Of a stretch of DNA of 31,501 bases, positions 3 through 31,501 are shown in pieces. Within the stretch, counting starts at the first letter, position 1. The number at the start of each line of letters is the position of its first letter. The DNA is from a virus. The stretch covers positions 1-31,501 of IMG/VR virus record IMGVR_UViG_3300000268_000002; one strand, given 5' to 3'. Below the pieces are notes generated by a model. That model had not been told where the DNA came from. It did not search any database and worked only from the letters and a program-made list of their open reading frames with translations. The translations under genes were made by a program, and so were the position numbers.

Positions 3-107
3 GCTGGAATCATGCGTGGTTTTGCTGTGCTAGATGAGAAGCGTTTTAAAGCGTGGTTAAACGAGCGTGATAACAGAGTTTTTAGAACTCGGACTGGAGT
101 GGTATGA
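3..107 (+). CDS. C-terminal end of an unidentified upstream protein (partial)
   Basis: Only the last 34 residues are in the window; the frame opens at base 3 and closes with TGA at 105-107. The tail is basic and polar, with a WLNERDNRVFRTRTG-type ending. The stop overlaps the next start in an ATGA, the coupling used throughout this genome, so I treat it as a real gene end. It precedes the adaptor, so a head or head-completion protein is likely by position only. Too little is present to name it. Confidence 0.6.
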   Translation, partial: AGIMRGFAVLDEKRFKAWLNERDNRVFRTRTGVV

Positions 108-724
108 GTTTCGCAACATACTCTGATTTAAAAACCTCAATTGCAGGATATTTGGCTCGGTCTGACTTGACCAGCCAGATTCCAGACTTCATTACATTTG
201 CTGAGAATCGACTCCGTAGAGAGTTGCGTATCCGTCAAATGCTAAAGTCAGTAACGACATCGACTGTATCTGGTGACTCTACTGTTGAGTTACCTGCTGA
301 CTTTATTGAGATTCGTGATTTTGTCGTAATGACAAACCCAATTCAGCCAATGAGTTACTCTAGCCCATCGGCATTGTCTAATGACCCAAGAGCATCAGAA
401 GTTGGTGTTCCTAAGTCTTACACAATTCTGGCTAACGAGTTCTTGCTGTCTCCTCCTCCTGATGGCATTTACACATTGAGAATGTTGTACTTTGCTGCAC
501 CTGCATATCTATCAAGCAGTAACGCATCTAATGTGTTTTTGAATATCGCACCTGATGCTTTGCTCTATGCTTCTTTGATTGAGGCAGAGCCGTATTTAAT
601 GAATGACGCTCGAATCAATACATGGGGAACTATGTACGACAGAGCGATTGCCTCTCTTGCCAAGTCTGACGAACAAGGTCAGTATTCTGGTGTTCCTTTA
701 GCAATGAAACTTACTCCAAGGTGA
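104..724 (+). CDS. Head-tail adaptor protein (SU10/P22 gp4-like)
   Basis: A 206-residue protein resembling the adaptors that form the ring under the portal in short-tailed phages. The N-terminus is helical (YSDLKTSIAGYLARSDL, then IPDFITFAENRLRRELRIRQM). It is followed by a beta-rich middle (LPADFIEIRDF) and a C-terminal helical part with LYASLIEAEPYLMND. This helix, beta insert, helix order and the length fit the family I know from SU10-like podoviruses. GGAG lies four bases before the ATG. It starts the tail module, five genes before the ejection proteins. The family assignment is by pattern recognition. Confidence 0.8.
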   Translation: MSFATYSDLKTSIAGYLARSDLTSQIPDFITFAENRLRRELRIRQMLKSVTTSTVSGDSTVELPADFIEIRDFVVMTNPIQPMSYSSPSALSNDPRASEVGVPKSYTILANEFLLSPPPDGIYTLRMLYFAAPAYLSSSNASNVFLNIAPDALLYASLIEAEPYLMNDARINTWGTMYDRAIASLAKSDEQGQYSGVPLAMKLTPR

Positions 725-728
725 AACT

Positions 729-1115
729 ATGGCTGAAATGTCAAACTATCTTGAGAACGCCTTAATTAACGGCACTCTCCGAGCAACATCCTACACAGCA
801 CCAACAACTGTGTATTTGGCACTCTACACTTCTGACCCAACAGACGCTGACACAGGTACTGAGGTATCTGGTACATCGTATGCTCGTCAGTCAATTACCT
901 TTGGTGCGCCTAGCAATGGTGCGACTACCAACTCTGCTGCTATTGAGTTTCCTCAAGCTGGTGGCTCATGGGGTACTGTTGCCTACATTGGTATTCGTGA
1001 TGCTTCTACAGCGGGTAACTTGCTGTATCACTCTCCGCTAGATGCTTCTAAGACTATTGCAACTGGCGATGTGTTCCGTATTGCGGCTGGTTCGTTGAGC
1101 GTCACATTGGCGTGA
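729..1115 (+). CDS. Small tail protein, mycobacteriophage Gp80-like/tail-fibre-like family
   Basis: A 128-residue all-beta-looking protein. It has the layout MSNYLENALINGTLR, then TVYLALYTSDPT, then SYARQSITFGAP, then a WGTVAYIGIRDA segment, ending in a hydrophobic DVFRIAAGSLSVTL. I recognise this order from a widespread small phage structural family often labelled tail-fibre-like or Gp80-like. GGTGA lies four bases before the ATG. Its place between adaptor and nozzle supports a virion role. Its exact position in the tail is unknown. Confidence 0.65.
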   Translation: MAEMSNYLENALINGTLRATSYTAPTTVYLALYTSDPTDADTGTEVSGTSYARQSITFGAPSNGATTNSAAIEFPQAGGSWGTVAYIGIRDASTAGNLLYHSPLDASKTIATGDVFRIAAGSLSVTLA

Positions 1116-1116
1116 G

Positions 1117-2007
1117 ATGGCTGATTTACTGCCTCCGTGGACGATTGATTCGCTAGACCAATTAAAGTCTAGCATTGATGACTTAACACTCACACTCGAT
1201 AGTCCACTTTATGAAACCTCAGTAACCCTCTGGGATGCTTATGCGTCCGTGAGTGCGTCTGCGACTGTTACAGCGGATGCTACTAGGGTTCAGTATGGTG
1301 GGGCGGCAGTAAATGGAACGGCAACAGTAACGGCTGATGGCACTCGTGTCCAGTTAGCAAGTGCAAGCATTGATTGTTCTGCAAGCGTTACTTGTGCAGG
1401 TACAAGAGTACAGAACGCCTCGGTAGGAATTGATGCAGTAGCAATTGTTACTTGCGATGCTATCAGGGTTCAGTTTGCTAGTGCAAGTATTACGGCAAGT
1501 GCTGATGTAACTGCTGTAGGCGGCATTGTTAAGGATGGTGTTGCCTCGATTACTGGAAATGCAACTGTTACGGCTAATGGCGGTATTGTTGCTGAAGGTG
1601 TAGCGGCTATCACAGGAAACGCTACAGTAAGCGCCTCTGGTATTCGTGTTCAGAACGCTGTTAGTAGCATAGACGCAACGGCTACTGTAACTGCTGAAGC
1701 AATCAGGGTAGCAGATGCAAGTGCAAGTGTTAGTGCTAATGCAACATTGACAGCAAATGCAACTGCTGATTATGCAGGTTCTGCGGCTGTAACTGGTACG
1801 GCTACGATCACAGCAAAGGGTGTTATTCTTGGTGAAAACTGGACACCAGTACCAGAGGATGAGAATACTTGGACACCAGTATCTAGCGATTCAAACACTT
1901 GGACAGTAGTTTCTAGTGACACAAATACATGGACACCTGTGTCTGCTAATGACAACACATGGACAATACAGGCTCAAGGAAGTAACACATGGCTACGACA
2001 AAACTAA
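1117..2007 (+). CDS. Tandem-repeat tail protein (20-residue and 10-residue periods)
   Basis: A 296-residue protein starting one base after the previous stop. Residues 13-32 (LDQLKSSIDDLTLTLDSPLY) form a box that reappears in the next gene. Residues 43-242 are ten gap-free 20-residue units of the form xASIxAxATVTAxxxRVQxA. From about 241 a 10-residue unit with NTW at its head (NTWTPVSSDS type) repeats about six times to the C-terminus. Ser/Thr/Ala/Val dominate and charge is low, which suggests a beta-solenoid or stacked beta arms. The last 19 bases overlap the nozzle gene. A fibre or tail-surface role is inferred from context. Confidence 0.75.
   Translation: MADLLPPWTIDSLDQLKSSIDDLTLTLDSPLYETSVTLWDAYASVSASATVTADATRVQYGGAAVNGTATVTADGTRVQLASASIDCSASVTCAGTRVQNASVGIDAVAIVTCDAIRVQFASASITASADVTAVGGIVKDGVASITGNATVTANGGIVAEGVAAITGNATVSASGIRVQNAVSSIDATATVTAEAIRVADASASVSANATLTANATADYAGSAAVTGTATITAKGVILGENWTPVPEDENTWTPVSSDSNTWTVVSSDTNTWTPVSANDNTWTIQAQGSNTWLRQN
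1243..1842 (+). repeat. Ten 60-bp coding repeats
   Basis: Bases encode ten consecutive 20-residue units without indels. Units differ at third positions and at variable residues, so nucleotide identity is partial while the protein period is exact. The end of each unit is most often RVQ plus a small residue. Confidence 0.8.
1843..2004 (+). repeat. Five to six 30-bp coding repeats (NTW units)
   Basis: Each unit encodes NTW followed by seven residues. In the last three units Thr-Trp is written ACATGG, which creates an out-of-frame ATG. The last of these is the start codon of the nozzle gene at 1989. Confidence 0.75.
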
Positions 2008-3434
2008 CATTTGGTGAATGGATGCCTGACCAACCTAGCATTACTGGTGCTTTGGTTGATGCTAAGAATGTAGTTTCTCAGGCTGTAGGCTACGGACCAC
2101 TTCCCACAGCGGCTACTTTCTCTGCTGCGGCTTCTGAAAACCTTACTACATTGGTAGCAGGGAAAACCCCAGTAAACGCTACTAAGTTGTTTGCTGCTGG
2201 CTCAACTAAGATTTTTGATGTTTCTGGTGTTGGTGCTTTGACCAATGTCTCAAAGTCTGGTGGTTACACACCTAATGCTAACAACGACAGATTCCGTTTT
2301 ACTCAGTTTGGCAATGTGATTATTGGCACTAACAATAGTGATGCAATGCAAGCCTACACTTTGGGTACTTCTACGGCATTTGCTGACTTAGCGGCTGGTG
2401 CGCCTATATGTAAGTTTTTGACTGTCGTGCGTGATTTCGTGGTGACAGCGTTTACGACTGAGAGTTCTACTGTCTATCCTGCTCGTGTTAGATGGTCTGG
2501 AATCAACGATGAGACTACATGGGGAACAAGCCAAGTAACTCAAGCAGACTTCCAAGATATTCCTGATGGTGGTCAGATTGTTGGCATCCGTGGTGGTGAG
2601 TTTGGTCTTGTCTTGATGGAAAAAGGTATTAGCCGCATGAGTTATGTCGGCACTCCTTTCATTTTCCAATTTGACAATATCTCTCGTGGTAAGGGATGTA
2701 TTGCGGCAGGTTCTATTGCTCAAATCCAAGGTGTTACATTCTTCTTGAGTGACGATGGCTTTTATATGTGTGATGGACAGCAAGTCACAGCCATTGGATC
2801 AGAGAAGGTTGATCGGTGGTTCTTCTCAAACGCTGATGAGAGTGGCTTTGACACAATGTCAGCGGCTGTTGACCCTGTACGCAAGTTGGTTATCTGGAAT
2901 TTCAAAACTACATTTGCACAGCGTCAACTAATCATTTATAACTTCAGAACACAGAAGTGGACTTATGGCGATGCAGGTACTGATTACATTTCAGACGCTT
3001 CTACCTCTGCCACTACGCTTGAGGGATTGGATTCGATCTCTAGCAGCATTGACGCTTTGACAGTATCTCTGGACTCTATTCTGTACATGGGCGGTAAATA
3101 CTTCCTTGGCGGTACAAGTGGTGCTTATGTGATTACCTATAACGGAGCAAACGCTACTGGAAACATCATTACAGGCGATTTAAACGCTGGTGGTAGATCG
3201 GTAGTTACTTTGGCTCGTCCATTGATTGACGGAGGCTCTGCGACTGTTGCTGTGGCTTCTAGGACGCTTTTGAGTGAGCAACCATCGTTTGGAACAGCAG
3301 TAGCGGCTGATTCTGACAATAGAGTCTCACTAAGGTCTAATGGCAACTTCCATCAGTTTAGAATTGTTCCGACTGGCACATGGAAAACTGCTGTTGCTTT
3401 GGATGTTGAAGTCCAAGGACAGGGGACTCGCTGA
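1989..3434 (+). CDS. Tail nozzle / packaged-DNA stabilisation protein (P22 gp10-like)
   Basis: A 481-residue protein matching the beta-propeller tail-hub family (P22 gp10, SU10 nozzle). The N-terminus has the typical opening LTFGEWMPDQPSITGALVDAKNVV. Propeller-like strands include KLFAAGSTKIFDVSG, FRFTQFGNVIIGTN, VRWSGINDETTW, FFLSDDGFYMCDGQ and LIIYNFRTQKWTYG. Residues 347-366 hold an LDSxxSSIDALTVSLDS box shared with the preceding gene. The start lies inside that gene's last repeat, a 19-base overlap, so translation is probably coupled. It would close the tail tube below the adaptor. Confidence 0.82.
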   Translation: MATTKLTFGEWMPDQPSITGALVDAKNVVSQAVGYGPLPTAATFSAAASENLTTLVAGKTPVNATKLFAAGSTKIFDVSGVGALTNVSKSGGYTPNANNDRFRFTQFGNVIIGTNNSDAMQAYTLGTSTAFADLAAGAPICKFLTVVRDFVVTAFTTESSTVYPARVRWSGINDETTWGTSQVTQADFQDIPDGGQIVGIRGGEFGLVLMEKGISRMSYVGTPFIFQFDNISRGKGCIAAGSIAQIQGVTFFLSDDGFYMCDGQQVTAIGSEKVDRWFFSNADESGFDTMSAAVDPVRKLVIWNFKTTFAQRQLIIYNFRTQKWTYGDAGTDYISDASTSATTLEGLDSISSSIDALTVSLDSILYMGGKYFLGGTSGAYVITYNGANATGNIITGDLNAGGRSVVTLARPLIDGGSATVAVASRTLLSEQPSFGTAVAADSDNRVSLRSNGNFHQFRIVPTGTWKTAVALDVEVQGQGTR

Positions 3435-8294: not shown

Positions 8295-10559
8295 ATGGCA
8301 AAGACAAAAATCTCAGAATTCAGCGCTACCCCTGCGAATAACACAGACATTGACAATATCAATATCGCAGAGGGCTGTGCGCCTAGTGGTATCAATGATG
8401 CTATCCGTGAGTTGATGGCTCAATTGAAAGATTGGCAATCTGGCACTTCTAATGACCCTTATGTTGTTGGCTCGTCTGGTAGCCTAACGCTTAATCAAGG
8501 TACTGCCAATGGAGTAGCGTATTTAAACGGCTCTAAGGTCGTTACAAGCGGTTCTGTCCTCACATTTGACGGAGCAATCCTTGGTGTGAATGGAATTTCT
8601 GTTGGTCGTGGTGCAGGTGCTGTGGCTTCAAATACTGCGGTGGGTGTTAGTGCTTTGGCGGCTAATACGACTGGTCTTGCAAACGATTCTTTTGGCTATC
8701 AATCACTTAATAGCAATACTACAGCAAATGAAAATGTGGGTTTTGGCTATCAAACTTTATATTCTGCTACAACTGGTGGAACAAATACAGCACTAGGAAG
8801 TGCCGCTGTTCGCAGTACCACAACAGGCGCAAGCAACACAGGCGTTGGCTATCGTGCCCTCTATTCCAACACTACAGCATCAATGAACACCGCAGTAGGC
8901 AACCAAGCCGCTTACAGCAACACTACAGGAACTGGAATTCTTGCTATTGGTAGCCGAAGCCTGTACAGCAATACTACTGGAACAGGCAACTTGGCTGTTG
9001 GTACTTCTGAAAGTGGTGGATATGAGGGAGCGCTTTTTGCAAACACCACTGGTGCAAATAACACTGCTGTTGGACAGCGCTCAATGGTTGCAAACACCAC
9101 AGGTGGAAGTAATGTAGCTGTTGGTCGTGATGCCCTTTTTGCCAACACCACAGCATCAGGAAGCACTGCTGTTGGTTATCAAGCTGGCTATAGTGGAACA
9201 ACAGCGCAATACAACCAATACTTTGGCTATCAAGCTGGCTACGCAACCACTACTGGTTCTGGAAATAATGCGTTTGGAACGCAAGCGCTTACGGCTGTAA
9301 CTACTGGTCAGTTAAATGTGGCGATGGGTAACAGCGCCATGATTTCCAACACTACAGGCTCTAATAACATTGGTATTGGTGATAATGCACTTCGCTCTAA
9401 CACCACAGCAACCTATAACACCGCTGTAGGCTATCAGTCATTGTATGCAAATACTACTGGTGTAAATACCGCAGTAGGTGCTGGAACATTGGATGCCAAC
9501 ACAACAGGCACAGGAAATACCTCTATGGGGTATTTCACTCTGTCTGATAACACAACTGGAAGTAACAACACCGCATATGGGCAAACAGCACTTGCCGCCA
9601 ATACTACGGCATCTAACAACACCGCTGTAGGTTATGAAGCGTTGTACGCAAATACTACAGGAACTGCCTCAGTTGCGGTTGGTAGGAGGGCTGGTTACGC
9701 AAACACAACAGGAGAATATAATGTCTTTGTTGGAGAGCAGTCTGGTTTATTCAACACCACTGGGTCTGGAAACACTTTTGTTGGTGAATACACTGGAAGT
9801 GCCGTAACAACAGGTGGCGGCAATACATTTATTGGTTCTACTATTACTGGTTTTGGTTCTGGCTATCTTGTAACAACAGGATCAAAAAACTCTATTCTTG
9901 GCGCTTACTCAGGCAACCAAGGTGGCTTAGACATCCGCACTGCCAACAACTACATCGTGCTGTCTGATGGGGATGGGAATCCACAAGCGTTATGTAACAA
10001 CGCTGGGGGATGGTACGCAGGGATGGGGACAAAGAACGAAGATGGGCTTTTGTCGCTTTTATCAAAAGAAGCCGATACAAACGGACCTGTTTTAATCGGA
10101 AGAACTGGAGCGCTTGGAAGCACAACAGCACGATGGTACGCAGGTTCATATTCATGGGTTAAAGGCGGTACTAACTACGACAACTTTACTGTTGCTTCTG
10201 GCTCTGCTGGCAGTGGAGGCGTATATCTTTCCGCTGGCGCAACATCTTGGGCTTCTGCTTCTGATGAGCGTAGAAAAGATATTATTGAGCCAATTATTGA
10301 TGCAGCAAACAAGGTAACTCAACTGCGTGCAGTTATTGGTAAATACAAAACAGATGAAGAAGGCACTCGCAGAAGTTTCTTGATTGCTCAAGATGTGCAA
10401 GCAGTATTGCCAGAGGCTATTGTTGTTTCACAAGATAGAGATGGCGAAGTGCTTGGCGTTCAATACACCGATGTAATCCCACTTCTTGTAGCCGCAATCA
10501 AAGAACAACAAGCAATCATTGAATCACTCAAGGCACGCTTGGATGCCGCTAATCTTTAA
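8295..10559 (+). CDS. Long tail fibre with C-terminal S74 intramolecular chaperone
   Basis: 754 residues in three parts. Residues 1-100 are a fibre N-terminus (ISEFSATPANNTDIDNINI, INDAIRELMAQL) likely to dock to the virion. Residues 124-520 hold about 23 units of 17 residues of the NTTGxxNTAVGxxALxA type, resembling YadA-type head beta-roll repeats, hence probably a trimeric shaft. The C-terminal 99 residues are a Peptidase_S74 domain starting SDERRKDI (Ser656, Lys661 as the expected catalytic pair) with FLIAQDVQAVLPEA and YTDVIPLLVAAIKE. Self-cleavage before Ser656 would release the chaperone after folding. GGAG precedes the ATG. Confidence 0.88.
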   Translation: MAKTKISEFSATPANNTDIDNINIAEGCAPSGINDAIRELMAQLKDWQSGTSNDPYVVGSSGSLTLNQGTANGVAYLNGSKVVTSGSVLTFDGAILGVNGISVGRGAGAVASNTAVGVSALAANTTGLANDSFGYQSLNSNTTANENVGFGYQTLYSATTGGTNTALGSAAVRSTTTGASNTGVGYRALYSNTTASMNTAVGNQAAYSNTTGTGILAIGSRSLYSNTTGTGNLAVGTSESGGYEGALFANTTGANNTAVGQRSMVANTTGGSNVAVGRDALFANTTASGSTAVGYQAGYSGTTAQYNQYFGYQAGYATTTGSGNNAFGTQALTAVTTGQLNVAMGNSAMISNTTGSNNIGIGDNALRSNTTATYNTAVGYQSLYANTTGVNTAVGAGTLDANTTGTGNTSMGYFTLSDNTTGSNNTAYGQTALAANTTASNNTAVGYEALYANTTGTASVAVGRRAGYANTTGEYNVFVGEQSGLFNTTGSGNTFVGEYTGSAVTTGGGNTFIGSTITGFGSGYLVTTGSKNSILGAYSGNQGGLDIRTANNYIVLSDGDGNPQALCNNAGGWYAGMGTKNEDGLLSLLSKEADTNGPVLIGRTGALGSTTARWYAGSYSWVKGGTNYDNFTVASGSAGSGGVYLSAGATSWASASDERRKDIIEPIIDAANKVTQLRAVIGKYKTDEEGTRRSFLIAQDVQAVLPEAIVVSQDRDGEVLGVQYTDVIPLLVAAIKEQQAIIESLKARLDAANL
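8664..9854 (+). repeat. About 23 coding repeats of 51 bp
   Basis: Each unit encodes 17 residues starting (N/T/V)TT(G/A). Exceptions are one unit with a 7-residue insertion (GGYEGAL region near 9010) and one shortened by a residue (NTTGVNTAVG, near 9455). ACTACAGGA/ACCACAGCA-type segments recur. The tract is prone to recombination and to assembly collapse. Confidence 0.8.
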
Positions 10560-15979: not shown

Positions 15980-16225
15980 TTAAAATGGCGCATCGTCAAA
16001 GTCATCTCTAAGAGAACGCTTTGTAGGTGCTTTAGCTTCCTTCTGATCTTTAGCCTTGATAGACAAGGACATAAATTTAGCGCCATCTTTGCTTTCTTTT
16101 AGCCATGCGCTAATCCAGAAATCTACACCCTCTACATTGAGTGACCCTTTGTAGTGAGGAAACTTCTCATCATCTCTACGCTCGTTCTTAAATAAAGCGC
16201 CTCTATTTTCATTGTTGTATTCCAT
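15980..16225 (-). CDS. SSB-like protein with acidic C-terminal tail
   Basis: 81 residues with strong AAGGAG six bases before the ATG. The layout is YNNENRGALFKNERRDD, then HYKGSLNVEGVDFWISAWLKES, then FMSLSIKAKDQ, a single small beta domain related by look to the DUF736-type proteins. It ends in DDFDDAPF, an acidic tipped tail like the protein-docking tail of single-strand binding proteins. It lies between HNH and winged-helix genes, downstream of the annealing protein. DNA binding is an inference. Confidence 0.6.
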   Translation of the reverse strand: MEYNNENRGALFKNERRDDEKFPHYKGSLNVEGVDFWISAWLKESKDGAKFMSLSIKAKDQKEAKAPTKRSLRDDFDDAPF

Positions 16226-16718
16226 TTAATGCTCCTTTATAAGCTGAAAACTCTTTATGCAACTTGTTGGTTGCTTCTATTGCTACTAGTTCAGCTAATT
16301 CCTTATTGTCGTAGTAACCAAAACTATGACACTTTGAATTAACTCTTATTTGCACATACCATTTTTTATCTCTTTTGTGCCACATTACTCCTTTAATTCC
16401 TGTTGTATTACGAGTGCTAACTTTTTGATTCATGCAATTTTGAGACTTTGTTGCTTCTCTCAAATTTTCAATTCGATTGTTAGTTTTGTTGTTGTCTATG
16501 TGGTCAACATAGTCTGGCAAATATCCATAGTGATACAGAAAAATTAGCCTGTGAGTTTTATGCAGTTTTGAGTTGACATGGATTCTGTAATAGCCAGTTT
16601 TTTCGTCTAATGAGCCAGCAGCCTGACCTATTTTTATAGCATTGGCTTTTTTGACTTTCCAATACAAAACTCCATCTGCATAATCAAAATATTCACAGAC
16701 TTCTTTTTGTGTAATCAT
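16209..16718 (-). CDS. HNH endonuclease with AP2 domain, homing-type
   Basis: 169 residues. The HNH_3-type core has H56-R57, then VDHIDNNKTNNRIENLREAT (D72-H73 and N80-N81 region). After it the AP2-like TTGIKGVMWHKRDKKWYVQIRV at about 105-155 probably contributes DNA binding. The gene starts directly after the ERF stop (TAA then ATG) and its last codons contain the ribosome-binding site of the SSB-like gene. It is more AT- and Lys/Asn-rich than its neighbours, suggesting recent arrival as a free-standing mobile gene. Confidence 0.85.
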   Translation of the reverse strand: MITQKEVCEYFDYADGVLYWKVKKANAIKIGQAAGSLDEKTGYYRIHVNSKLHKTHRLIFLYHYGYLPDYVDHIDNNKTNNRIENLREATKSQNCMNQKVSTRNTTGIKGVMWHKRDKKWYVQIRVNSKCHSFGYYDNKELAELVAIEATNKLHKEFSAYKGALNGIQQ

Positions 16719-29265: not shown

Positions 29266-31501
29266 ATGGCTAGAAATAACTTTTACTCAATGGTCAACGA
29301 TGATGGCGAGGTATCGCTTGAAGACTTGTTGATGCAAATTGAGCAGTTACAGCCTGTCTACCAAGAGCCAGATGTTGATTATTACGCACAGCAATTTGCA
29401 CCAGATGTATTTGCTGAAGTGCCTACTCAAGTCTATCAACCAGAGCCTGTATATCAACCTACATATCAGCCAGAGCCAGTTTATCAGCCTGTCTATCAAG
29501 AGCCAGTTTACATTGCACCAGAGCCTGTGTACCAAGCACCTGCGCCTGTATATGTAGCACCAGAGCCAGTTTATGCAGCGCCAGAGCCTGTATATCAAGA
29601 GCCTGTGTATCAGCCAGTCTTTCAACAACCAGAAGTTCAACAGCCTTATGTTGAGCCACAAACTGTTCAAGAAGTTATCAATCAGATAGCAGCACAATTT
29701 CCTCCGTCTGTGGTCAACGAGATCATTGCTAGAGAGCCAATTGAGCAACCTATTCAACGAGATGCAGACGCACCAGTTGAGCAGTTGCAACCTGCACAGC
29801 CAGTAGAAGAAACTAAGCCTTCAGCATCGGTTATTGATAACCTAACAAAGCAAATATTAGGCTCTAGCGACACTTCTCAATGGAAAGGTGGCGTAAGTGC
29901 TGAGACTGCCGCTAAAGACATGGCTAAGATCATGGCTGGCATTGGCATCACAGACATTAGTCAGTTTGGCAAGATCACACAAACTGGCTTGCAAGAGGAT
30001 GTCCGTCCTGATGGTCGTGGTGGTTATGTTGACCAACGAGGCAATCCTGTTGACCCTAACATTGTCCAAACAGGTTCGTACGAGACTGAAGGCGGTCGCA
30101 TTGACTATGCTACTGCACCTATTGGCACACAAGTAACTTACGGCAACAAAGAAACAAACCAAGCTGTACCGATCACATATAGTGAGCGTCAGACTGGTAA
30201 CGCTTTTGGTGGTACTTTTGAGGGCAAAGGTAACACAGGCTATCGAGTAGATTTTGATGCTTCTGGTAAGCCTGTTTTCTATACGACTGGTGCTTCAAGC
30301 CGTGATGACATTGGTGTGTTTGCACCGATTATTGCTGCGGCTTTGACTCCTATTCTCGGTCCTGCTGCCGCTTCATTGCTTGGACCAACAGCCTCAACAC
30401 TAGCCACAAACGCACTAACTGGTGCTTTGGTCGGTGGTAGCACTTCAGCGATTACTGGCGACAGTATTGCAAAAGGTGCATTGCTTGGTGGTGCAGGTGG
30501 CGCTGTTGCAGATATTGTCAGTCCTTATTTGCCATCAGCACCAACAGAATTGACTGAGCGTCAGTTTGCAATTGCTGATGCCAAACAATTGGCTGCTAGT
30601 GGTATACCGCCAGAGCAAATATCAGAAATATTAAGTGTTGGTGGATATAACGATGCTATTGTCAATAGGGCAATGGACGCTATTGCAACAGCACCAGTAG
30701 CTGTTACTACACCAACTACTCAGCCTCCAATTGAGACTGTTCAAGTTTCTGCGCCTGTAGCGACAACACCAACAGCAAGTCAAGTAATCAATGCGATTGT
30801 TAACCAACAACCAGTTCCTCAAGTAGCTGCACCAGTAGAAACAGTACAGGTGACTGAGCCTACTCAGCCTGTTCAGACAACTACACCAAGTGTAAATGAA
30901 GTAATCAATTCGATTATTCAGCCTGTATTAACAGAGCCGCCAGTCGTTGAGCCAACTCCTACATCAGTTGCACCAGTTGAGACTGTGCAAGTTAACGAGC
31001 CTGTTCAACCTACTACACCGACTGTTAGCGAAGTAATCAATTCGATTGCTCAGACACCAGTTGTCCAACCTACTGTTACAGCACAACCAACTGTTGAAGT
31101 TGTTGCTAAACAAGCGCCAACACAAGTAGAGCCAAGCGTAATAAACGCTGTTAATTCATCTATTGCGGCTAATGCAATTCGTCCTGTTGAAACTGTTAAT
31201 GTTTCTGCTGCATCAGAAAAGCCTACAACAGTAAATCAAGTTCTTGCGACAATTGCTAATCCATCTGCTGTTACCCCTTCTACACCAGAGGTGGTTGTAA
31301 AGTCTTCAGCACCTAAAGAAGAGCCAGTTACACCTATTGTTACGCCTATTGTTAATGAAACACCAACAGTAGAAGTAACATCAATTCGAGAGAAGCCAAG
31401 CACGATTACAAACGAGACAGAGCCAGCCCCTGTGATTGTTGCGCCTCCGATTACTGGAACAGTACCTCCTAAGACCTACACAGCCTCTGAGATCATTGAT
31501 A
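29266..31501 (+). CDS. Giant repeat protein after the portal (partial, 3' end outside the window)
   Basis: At least 745 residues from ATG 29266 (AAGGG seven bases before), open to the window end. Parts: acidic start; residues about 55-125 of EPVYQ/EPVYxAP repeats; a charged, Gly-rich middle; a Gly/Ala hydrophobic part about 350-420 that could insert in membrane; then Pro/Thr/Val-rich linkers separating short (E/Q)V(I/L)NxI segments near 136, 506, 545, 589, 625, 658 and 742. No enzyme motif seen. Its place where scaffold or coat genes usually lie is striking. A virion role is likely but not identified. Confidence 0.65.
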   Translation, partial: MARNNFYSMVNDDGEVSLEDLLMQIEQLQPVYQEPDVDYYAQQFAPDVFAEVPTQVYQPEPVYQPTYQPEPVYQPVYQEPVYIAPEPVYQAPAPVYVAPEPVYAAPEPVYQEPVYQPVFQQPEVQQPYVEPQTVQEVINQIAAQFPPSVVNEIIAREPIEQPIQRDADAPVEQLQPAQPVEETKPSASVIDNLTKQILGSSDTSQWKGGVSAETAAKDMAKIMAGIGITDISQFGKITQTGLQEDVRPDGRGGYVDQRGNPVDPNIVQTGSYETEGGRIDYATAPIGTQVTYGNKETNQAVPITYSERQTGNAFGGTFEGKGNTGYRVDFDASGKPVFYTTGASSRDDIGVFAPIIAAALTPILGPAAASLLGPTASTLATNALTGALVGGSTSAITGDSIAKGALLGGAGGAVADIVSPYLPSAPTELTERQFAIADAKQLAASGIPPEQISEILSVGGYNDAIVNRAMDAIATAPVAVTTPTTQPPIETVQVSAPVATTPTASQVINAIVNQQPVPQVAAPVETVQVTEPTQPVQTTTPSVNEVINSIIQPVLTEPPVVEPTPTSVAPVETVQVNEPVQPTTPTVSEVINSIAQTPVVQPTVTAQPTVEVVAKQAPTQVEPSVINAVNSSIAANAIRPVETVNVSAASEKPTTVNQVLATIANPSAVTPSTPEVVVKSSAPKEEPVTPIVTPIVNETPTVEVTSIREKPSTITNETEPAPVIVAPPITGTVPPKTYTASEIID
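29428..29640 (+). repeat. Coding repeats of EPVYQ type
   Basis: The tract repeats CCAGAGCC(T/A)GTxTAT and CAGCC(T/A)GTxTATCAA words about eight times, encoding Glu-Pro-Val-Tyr units with Gln, Pro or Ala spacers. Unit length varies. Antisense ORFs here come from this composition and are not genes. Confidence 0.75.
30781..31501 (+). repeat. Spaced coding repeats with VINxI core
   Basis: GAAGTAATCAATTCGATT is identical at 30898-30915 and 31030-31047; weaker copies are at 30781, 31138, 31237 and 31489. Core spacing is about 33-44 codons with one longer gap, and an ETVQV segment recurs between them. Confidence 0.65.

What the first reader, a model, noticed from the sequence alone, without database searches (positions are those of the whole stretch)
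1117..2007. Strictly periodic tail protein: ten 20-residue then six 10-residue units
Residues 43-242 repeat every 20 residues with no gap, then the chain switches to exactly half that period (NTW units). A change by a factor of two suggests one turn per 20 residues in a beta-solenoid followed by a half-turn form, or a change from stacked to capped arms. Indel-free repetition is under strong length control.
Basis: partly seen in the sequence, partly recalled or inferred. Interest (0 to 1): 0.55.

Follow-up and report, generated by a model that had tools for sequence, protein, structure and literature searches.

The report
Repeat "rope" partner of phage beads
This gene of a short-tailed phage encodes a chain of exact 20-residue repeats that, judged by the gene it constantly travels with, is probably the string that holds bead proteins together in a flexible fibre on the virus particle, a kind of fibre known in detail from one phage and apparently much more widespread.

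Summary
The repeat is real. ORF 1117-2007 (296 aa) has ten gap-free 20-residue units (43-242), then a tryptophan array of period 10 (six W; five full units). In 187 distinct relatives, 1381 of 1436 unit spacings are exactly 20; lineages differ by whole units.

A confident beta-solenoid is not supported (AlphaFold2 mean pLDDT 44), and the 'exact half period' is not general: tail arrays of comparable proteins have period 9, 10 or 13.

The best clue lies next door. The preceding gene (729-1115) belongs to Gp80, the bead of 'fiber I' of podophage GP4. Of 134 loci fetched by this bead alone, 113 carry exactly one strongly period-20 ORF (63 of 66 with at least 5 kb downstream), against 1 of 1283 other ORFs. 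Conversely 32 of 37 repeat-bearing records hold a bead gene, including all 24 of at least 28 kb. Bead neighbours without detectable homology, in Burkholderia phages, marine podophages and mycobacteriophages, show the same period.

I conclude that this is the rope threading Gp80 beads, as in GP4 fiber I (paper recalled, not readable). Its N-terminus copies a segment of the phage's own nozzle. Binding and extended shape are inferred. Confidence 0.62.

The parts
1117..2007 (+). rope protein, 296 aa (P0001)
   Evidence: directly follows the Gp80 gene with one base between
1117..1242 (+). N-terminal anchor segment, residues 1-42; residues 9-32 (1141-1212) match the nozzle protein of the same phage
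   Evidence: 96% mean identity to the window among 70 other distinct 296-aa relatives
1243..1842 (+). ten ungapped 20-residue units, residues 43-242
1843..1992 (+). five 10-residue units, residues 243-292, W at every tenth residue from 242
1993..2007 (+). C-terminal LRQN and stop; 1989-2007 overlaps the start of the nozzle gene
729..1115 (+). bead protein, Gp80 family (GP4 fiber I)
   Evidence: Pfam PF23140 E 1.6e-51; PDB 8jou E 2.9e-14
104..724 (+). tail adaptor
   Evidence: Pfam SU10_adaptor E 2.7e-35; PDB 7z47 and 9nwi
1989..3434 (+). tail nozzle / stabilisation protein
   Evidence: phrog_3287 E 2.5e-72; PDB 8zkk nozzle gp16 E 3.2e-13
3015..3086 (+). nozzle segment (residues 343-366) that resembles the rope's N-terminal anchor
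   Evidence: local score 70 against shuffled 27.7 +/- 4.3, 0 of 500 as high

Best explanation
P0001 is the rope of a 'beads on a rope' virion fibre of the GP4 fiber I kind. Shown here: it is the fixed genomic partner of the Gp80 bead gene, is built of indel-free 20-residue units that change in number by whole units, and carries an N-terminal segment resembling part of the phage's nozzle. Inferred: each 20-residue unit (two beta strands and two turns) docks onto one Gp80 subunit, so ten units would seat ten subunits, the five dimers that I recall being reported for GP4 fiber I. The N-terminus would hold the fibre at the tail neck by imitating the nozzle segment, and the tryptophan array would be a separate end module (cap, or second attachment). 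Whole-unit indels would then add or drop beads without disturbing the rest, whereas an indel inside a unit would put the following units out of register, which would explain the strict period.
For: Upstream neighbour is Gp80. Of 134 gp80-selected loci, 113 have exactly one strongly period-20 ORF (90 adjacent, 23 further downstream, none upstream), 63 of 66 where at least 5 kb downstream is held; control 1 of 1283 non-rope ORFs. Reverse: 32 of 37 rope records hold gp80, all 24 of at least 28 kb; the 5 misses are 19-24 kb fragments. 17 of 17 MEP402-type loci have gp80 directly upstream. Of 20 named gp80-selected records, 15 have a directly following gene with z20 of 2.8-10.6, in families that do not cluster at 40% identity. 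Mycobacteriophages: the gene directly before gp80 has z20 6.4 and 5.0, then a Gly_rich_2 domain. GP4's own adaptor gene is gp81, and a paper calls its ORF78 tail fiber II, so synteny leaves gp79 as GP4's rope candidate. Nozzle-like N-terminus: 94% of 148 pairs at z above 5.
Against: No complex is shown. AF2 of a bead-rope read-through chain gave no interpretable docking and modelled the rope part as a beta-helix (pLDDT about 50-65; Z 16.9 to the beta-helical antifreeze protein 3p4g). P0001 has no PHROG match, thus no detected homology to phrog_19041, the family of the Burkholderia counterparts. A profile of three of these finds no chain in the PDB, so the GP4 rope is not confirmed by sequence. 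Of 20 named records, MW202496 and Octadecabacter DB2 show no period-20 gene in the short stretch read; jumbo phages X1 and ACP17 have gp80 without one in the neighbours tested. Unit numbers range from about 5 to 11 or more by eye, and the bead count in any relative is unknown.
Confidence: 0.62

Rival explanations
1. P0001 is a beta-solenoid (20 residues per turn) or trimeric beta fibre that stands alone, and Gp80 is a separate component that only shares the operon.
For: Alternating small/aliphatic pattern in each unit; AF2 models are beta-helix-like for P0001 and for the MEP402-type rope (Z 16.9 to 3p4g).
Against: Low confidence (pLDDT 44 and 50-65), and AF2 is known to make such models from perfect repeats (PMC11795689). 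A shared operon does not explain why unrelated bead neighbours use 20 residues too, nor why rope and bead occur together when kilobases apart. A ten-turn solenoid would be about 5 nm long (4.8 angstrom per turn, textbook value), too short to join five bead dimers.
Confidence: 0.2
2. Each unit forms a short solenoid-like or hairpin domain of its own that docks end to end with Gp80 beads: a partner of Gp80, but folded rather than rope-like.
For: Same co-occurrence data; beta-rich prediction.
Against: The GP4 partner is recalled as an 'elongated rope protein'; 20 residues is small for a domain.
Confidence: 0.13
3. P0001 is a low-complexity adhesin or linker without a defined partner, kept in place by synteny.
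For: Database names such as 'serine-rich adhesin' on relatives; AF2 confidence is low.
Against: Exact spacing in 1381 of 1436 cases; no random indels; two-way co-occurrence with gp80 also when not adjacent.
Confidence: 0.05

Closest known systems
Fiber I of Ralstonia podophage GP4 (Zheng et al. 2023, J Mol Biol 435:168258; PDB 8jou)
   Same: Bead protein of the same Pfam family directly upstream; the gene in the rope position of related Burkholderia phages has the same 20-residue period.
   Different: No sequence homology detected between P0001 and the Burkholderia-phage counterparts; P0001 has a tryptophan tail and a nozzle-like N-terminus. The five-dimer and rope details are recalled from the abstract; the paper was not held.
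Bead-chain neck fibre of Anabaena myophage A-1(L), gp82/gp81/gp80 (PMC10966104; outline, abstract and passages read)
   Same: Flexible beaded fibre, five per virion, at the neck.
   Different: Beads there are trimers and no repeat rope is described in the passages read; whether A-1(L)'s own gp80 is related to GP4 Gp80 was not tested (the shared number is only a gene number).
LSH1 gp34-gp36 module (PMC13243795, section 16 read)
   Same: gp35 matches 8JOU_g; neighbouring gp34 ends in a region the authors model as a poor beta helix and suspect of a repetitive motif, as a rope would look.
   Different: The LSH1 sequence was not held, so a 20-residue period there is untested.
phrog_416 minor tail proteins of mycobacteriophages (JoeDirt gp21, prophiGD21-1 gp50)
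   Same: Next to a Gp80-like gene; period 20 over about 165-175 residues (z20 7.2 and 6.9).
   Different: Upstream rather than downstream, and fused to a Gly_rich_2 domain.
Two-strand beta-solenoid repeats (antifreeze protein 3p4g)
   Same: AF2 model of a rope relative resembles it (Z 16.9).
   Different: Low-confidence model; no confident prediction for P0001.

Membership tests
GP4-type fiber I module (Gp80 bead plus rope) | Gp80-family bead protein (PF23140) encoded next to it | tested here: met
   E 1.6e-51; 8jou E 2.9e-14
GP4-type fiber I module (Gp80 bead plus rope) | rope physically links Gp80 dimers | not testable with these tools
   single-chain prediction only; read-through chain gave pTM 0.41
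GP4-type fiber I module (Gp80 bead plus rope) | co-occurrence of bead and rope across genomes | tested here: met
   113 of 134 loci; 32 of 37 records
GP4-type fiber I module (Gp80 bead plus rope) | 15-fold fiber-tail adaptor as anchor | not tested
   the window starts just upstream of the adaptor gene; feature recalled from the GP4 abstract
phrog_19041 (Burkholderia-phage protein in the rope position) | sequence homology | tested here: not met
   P0001 matches no PHROG at E up to 1; BcepIL02 gp56 and BcepMigl gp57 do. Hence 'works like', not 'is a member of'
beta-solenoid fibre | confident solenoid model | tested here: inconclusive
   pLDDT 44, pTM 0.39; beta-helix-like matches Z up to 11.8
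trimeric tail fibre / tailspike | homotrimer with a receptor-binding or chaperone domain | not testable with these tools
   no Pfam domain above cut-off in P0001; the S74 chaperone lies in another gene, 8295-10559

The most novel reading that the evidence does not exclude
A general two-gene appendage of tailed phages: a small Gp80 bead, and a rope in which the number of 20-residue repeats sets the number of beads (a molecular ruler outside the tail). Anchors and tips are swappable: a nozzle-like peptide, an MFG-type start, a glycine-rich tip in mycobacteriophages, a baseplate domain in Bacillus-type myophages. Rope sequences have diverged beyond recognition while the 20-residue period stayed.
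Probability: 0.4. Interest if true: 0.75.

Novelty: new variant of a known kind. Interest (0 to 1): 0.55.

Why it matters
Gp80-like genes are annotated as 'head protein', 'minor tail protein' or 'hypothetical' in hundreds of phages (483 records), and their repeat partners as 'serine-rich adhesin', 'E3 ubiquitin-protein ligase HERC6' or nothing. If they form one module, a class of flexible beaded fibres becomes recognisable from sequence alone through a 20-residue period beside a Gp80 gene, in podo-, sipho- and myophages. It also gives a simple countable test of one unit per bead, and a case in which the period, not the sequence, is what is conserved.

Tried and rejected
Beta-solenoid as main reading: rejected as unproven. 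The 'half period' as a structural rule: rejected, as other ropes end in arrays of period 9 or 13. Direct PDB match of P0001: none of use (best E 0.95); of the Burkholderia rope and the Itty13 neighbour: none. Pfam DUF5649 (E 0.02, below cut-off): not followed. Cellular genomes: the P0001 scan of genome contigs found no relative. LSH1 test of the rope idea: record not held; the first 50 kb of Slicko01 held no gp80 match. Jumbo phages X1 and ACP17: gp80 without a period-20 neighbour, a miss for the generalisation. Lietuvens and PVJ1: the whole next protein is weak (z20 1.5 and 2.7); only its first 135-150 residues give 4.3 and 5.3, and that range was chosen by eye afterwards. The first bead-rope alignment (A3) put rope rows into bead columns and was replaced by A4. 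Literature searches for a rope or 20-residue repeat in such fibres listed no paper that describes this protein family; only a PMC open-licence library was searched.

Full report
OBSERVATION. ORF 1117-2007 (+) encodes 296 aa. Residues 43-242 are ten ungapped units of 20 (lag-20 identity 49%, z 15.2); from residue 242 a tryptophan recurs every 10 residues, six in all, with five full units. Consensus over about 1600 units from relatives: ASITGTATVTADGIRVQFGS, with small or aliphatic residues at odd positions 1-13, as in two strands joined by turns.

RELATIVES. A viral-contig scan gave 207 relatives (best 80 kept); two more scans with diverged members gave 79 loci each. Of 242 loci, 241 had a matching ORF, 231 a complete one, 187 of them distinct (incomplete ORFs were dropped). 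Unit spacing is exactly 20 in 1381 of 1436 cases and W spacing exactly 10 in 807 of 822. Four of the 187 were parsed poorly (0, 0, 2 and 3 units at lengths 181, 221, 221 and 325). Lengths fall in steps of about 20: 296, 276, 238, 218, 198 aa and others. Between 296-aa relatives a unit matches the unit at the same position best in 73% of cases over 2205 pairs, and in the closest relative the divergence sits in single units (against L001, units 8 and 9 are 65% and 50% identical, the other units 95-100%). Units are thus positional but change as modules.

NEIGHBOURHOOD. Order: adaptor (104-724), Gp80 bead (729-1115), P0001, nozzle (1989-3434), then putative ejection proteins and an S74 tail fibre. 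Gp80 is Pfam's 'Podophage GP4 fiber I protein' and matches 8jou, which holds ten chains of that sequence. I recall from the abstract of Zheng et al. 2023 that GP4 has five fiber I, each of five Gp80 dimers linked by an elongated rope protein; the paper is not held, its title is confirmed by reference lists, and the entry title 'Fiber I and fiber-tail-adaptor of phage GP4'.

TEST OF THE PARTNERSHIP. (a) Named phages found by Gp80 similarity alone: 20 records fetched before the idea was tested numerically; the directly following gene has lag-20 z of 2.8 or more in 15: BcepMigl 3.5, BcepIL02 8.2, JC1 4.3, PBC5 4.3, Atu_ph08 2.9, POI1126 7.0, phiM5 3.3, DSL-LC06 4.5, CRP-5 3.4, CRP-4 2.8, MW202879 10.6, MEP401 8.6, MEP402 9.8, C72C1 5.6, Itty13 2.9. 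In CRP-4, CRP-5, JC1, Itty13, Atu_ph08, phiM5, DSL-LC06, MEP401 and MEP402 another lag scores higher than 20 (40 or 41 in five of them). Venkman and MW202481 carry the repeat gene elsewhere; Lietuvens only weakly; MW202496 and Octadecabacter DB2 not in the short stretch read. Five control proteins have z20 below 2. (b) Of 326 gp80 ORFs, 311 have a following ORF of at least 100 aa; these are 249 distinct proteins in 27 clusters at 40% identity; 13 clusters have z20 of 3 or more in their longest member. Most clusters without it look like fibre genes. (c) Loci selected by gp80 only (134 newly numbered; loci already held are not counted): 113 have exactly one ORF with z20 of 5 or more and top lag 20 or 40; 90 adjacent, 23 at about 0.5 to 4.5 kb downstream, none upstream; 21 have none, of which 18 have less than 5 kb downstream. 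Many of these loci are close relatives, so they are not independent; (a) and (b) are the check on that. (d) Background: of 1336 other ORFs of at least 130 aa, 54 have z20 of 5 or more, and 53 of these match the rope profile, leaving 1 of 1283. (e) Reverse: 37 repeat-bearing records, chosen for contig length, hold gp80 in 32; all 24 of at least 28 kb do. (f) MEP402-type ropes: 17 of 17 loci have gp80 directly upstream. (g) Two mycobacteriophages, fetched after the idea was formed: the gene directly before gp80 has z20 6.4 and 5.0 and ends in Gly_rich_2. (h) Three further phages: PVJ1 positive in its first 150 residues only, a range chosen afterwards; X1 and ACP17 negative.

ENDS OF THE ROPE. 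Residues 9-32 match nozzle residues 343-366 (score 70; shuffles 27.7 +/- 4.3; 0 of 500); eight other window proteins give nothing comparable. In relatives with the same N-terminal type 94% of 148 pairs exceed z 5; with the MFG-type N-terminus 0 of 49; 'other' types 44% of 32. The C-terminal arrays have period 10 (W), 9 (R-x-L-x-V, Burkholderia and rhizobium phages, mostly weak, z 1.1-4.0) or 13 (MEP402, z 5.4): a recurring short-period end module, but not a fixed half of 20.

STRUCTURE. AF2 on A1: pLDDT 44, pTM 0.39. AF2 on an artificial bead-rope read-through chain of L399: pLDDT 60, pTM 0.41; the bead part matches 8jou (Z 14.1, rmsd 2.2, 125 aligned), the rope part is beta-helix-like at pLDDT about 50-65. 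This neither shows docking nor excludes a solenoid. The bead also resembles small neck-region proteins of phages Sf14 (9c39) and Bas63 (9mt4) (Z about 10).

MECHANISM. Committed reading: P0001 is the rope; units seat beads; the N-terminus anchors at the neck by nozzle mimicry; the W-tail is an end module. Shown: pairing, period, whole-unit change, N-terminal similarity. Inferred: binding, one unit per subunit (ten units and ten GP4 bead chains is a coincidence of numbers from two different phages), extended shape, polarity. Polarity is unclear: in mycobacteriophages the extra domain is C-terminal and tip-like; in Lietuvens and PVJ1 the C-terminal part belongs to a baseplate-region protein.

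NOVELTY. The kind (GP4 fiber I) is known; P0001's family has no PHROG, no Pfam above cut-off and no solved relative by sequence. New here are the gene assignment by pairing, the breadth, and the swappable ends.

Noticed in passing
1141-1212 and 3015-3086: Rope residues 9-32 and nozzle residues 343-366 of the same phage share a motif (SSIDxLTxxLDSxLY); conserved pairwise in relatives.
   Followed up: partly
1989-2007: The last TWLRQN of P0001 overlaps the nozzle start codon, so part of its conservation may come from the nozzle gene; in L081 the two genes do not overlap.
   Followed up: no
L254:2211-2720: In Agrobacterium phage Atu_ph08 the rope-position ORF is not annotated; an opposite-strand gene is annotated over part of it.
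   Followed up: partly
L416:4801-5976 and L417:3819-4973: Mycobacteriophage minor tail proteins (phrog_416) consist of a period-20 region followed by a glycine-rich domain, next to a Gp80-like gene.
   Followed up: partly
L248:4403-5326 and L420:7402-8427: Next to Gp80, Bacillus-type myophages have a baseplate-region protein whose first 135-150 residues show period 20 (z 4.3 and 5.3, range chosen by eye).
   Followed up: partly
8295-10559: S74-chaperone tail fibre with a long run of NTTG-rich repeats.
   Followed up: no
29266-31500: ORF open at the window end; N-terminal part is a proline/tyrosine-rich repeat (EPVYQP), and later parts look repetitive too.
   Followed up: no
16209-16718, - strand: Translation looks like an HNH homing endonuclease (recalled motif; not searched).
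   Followed up: no
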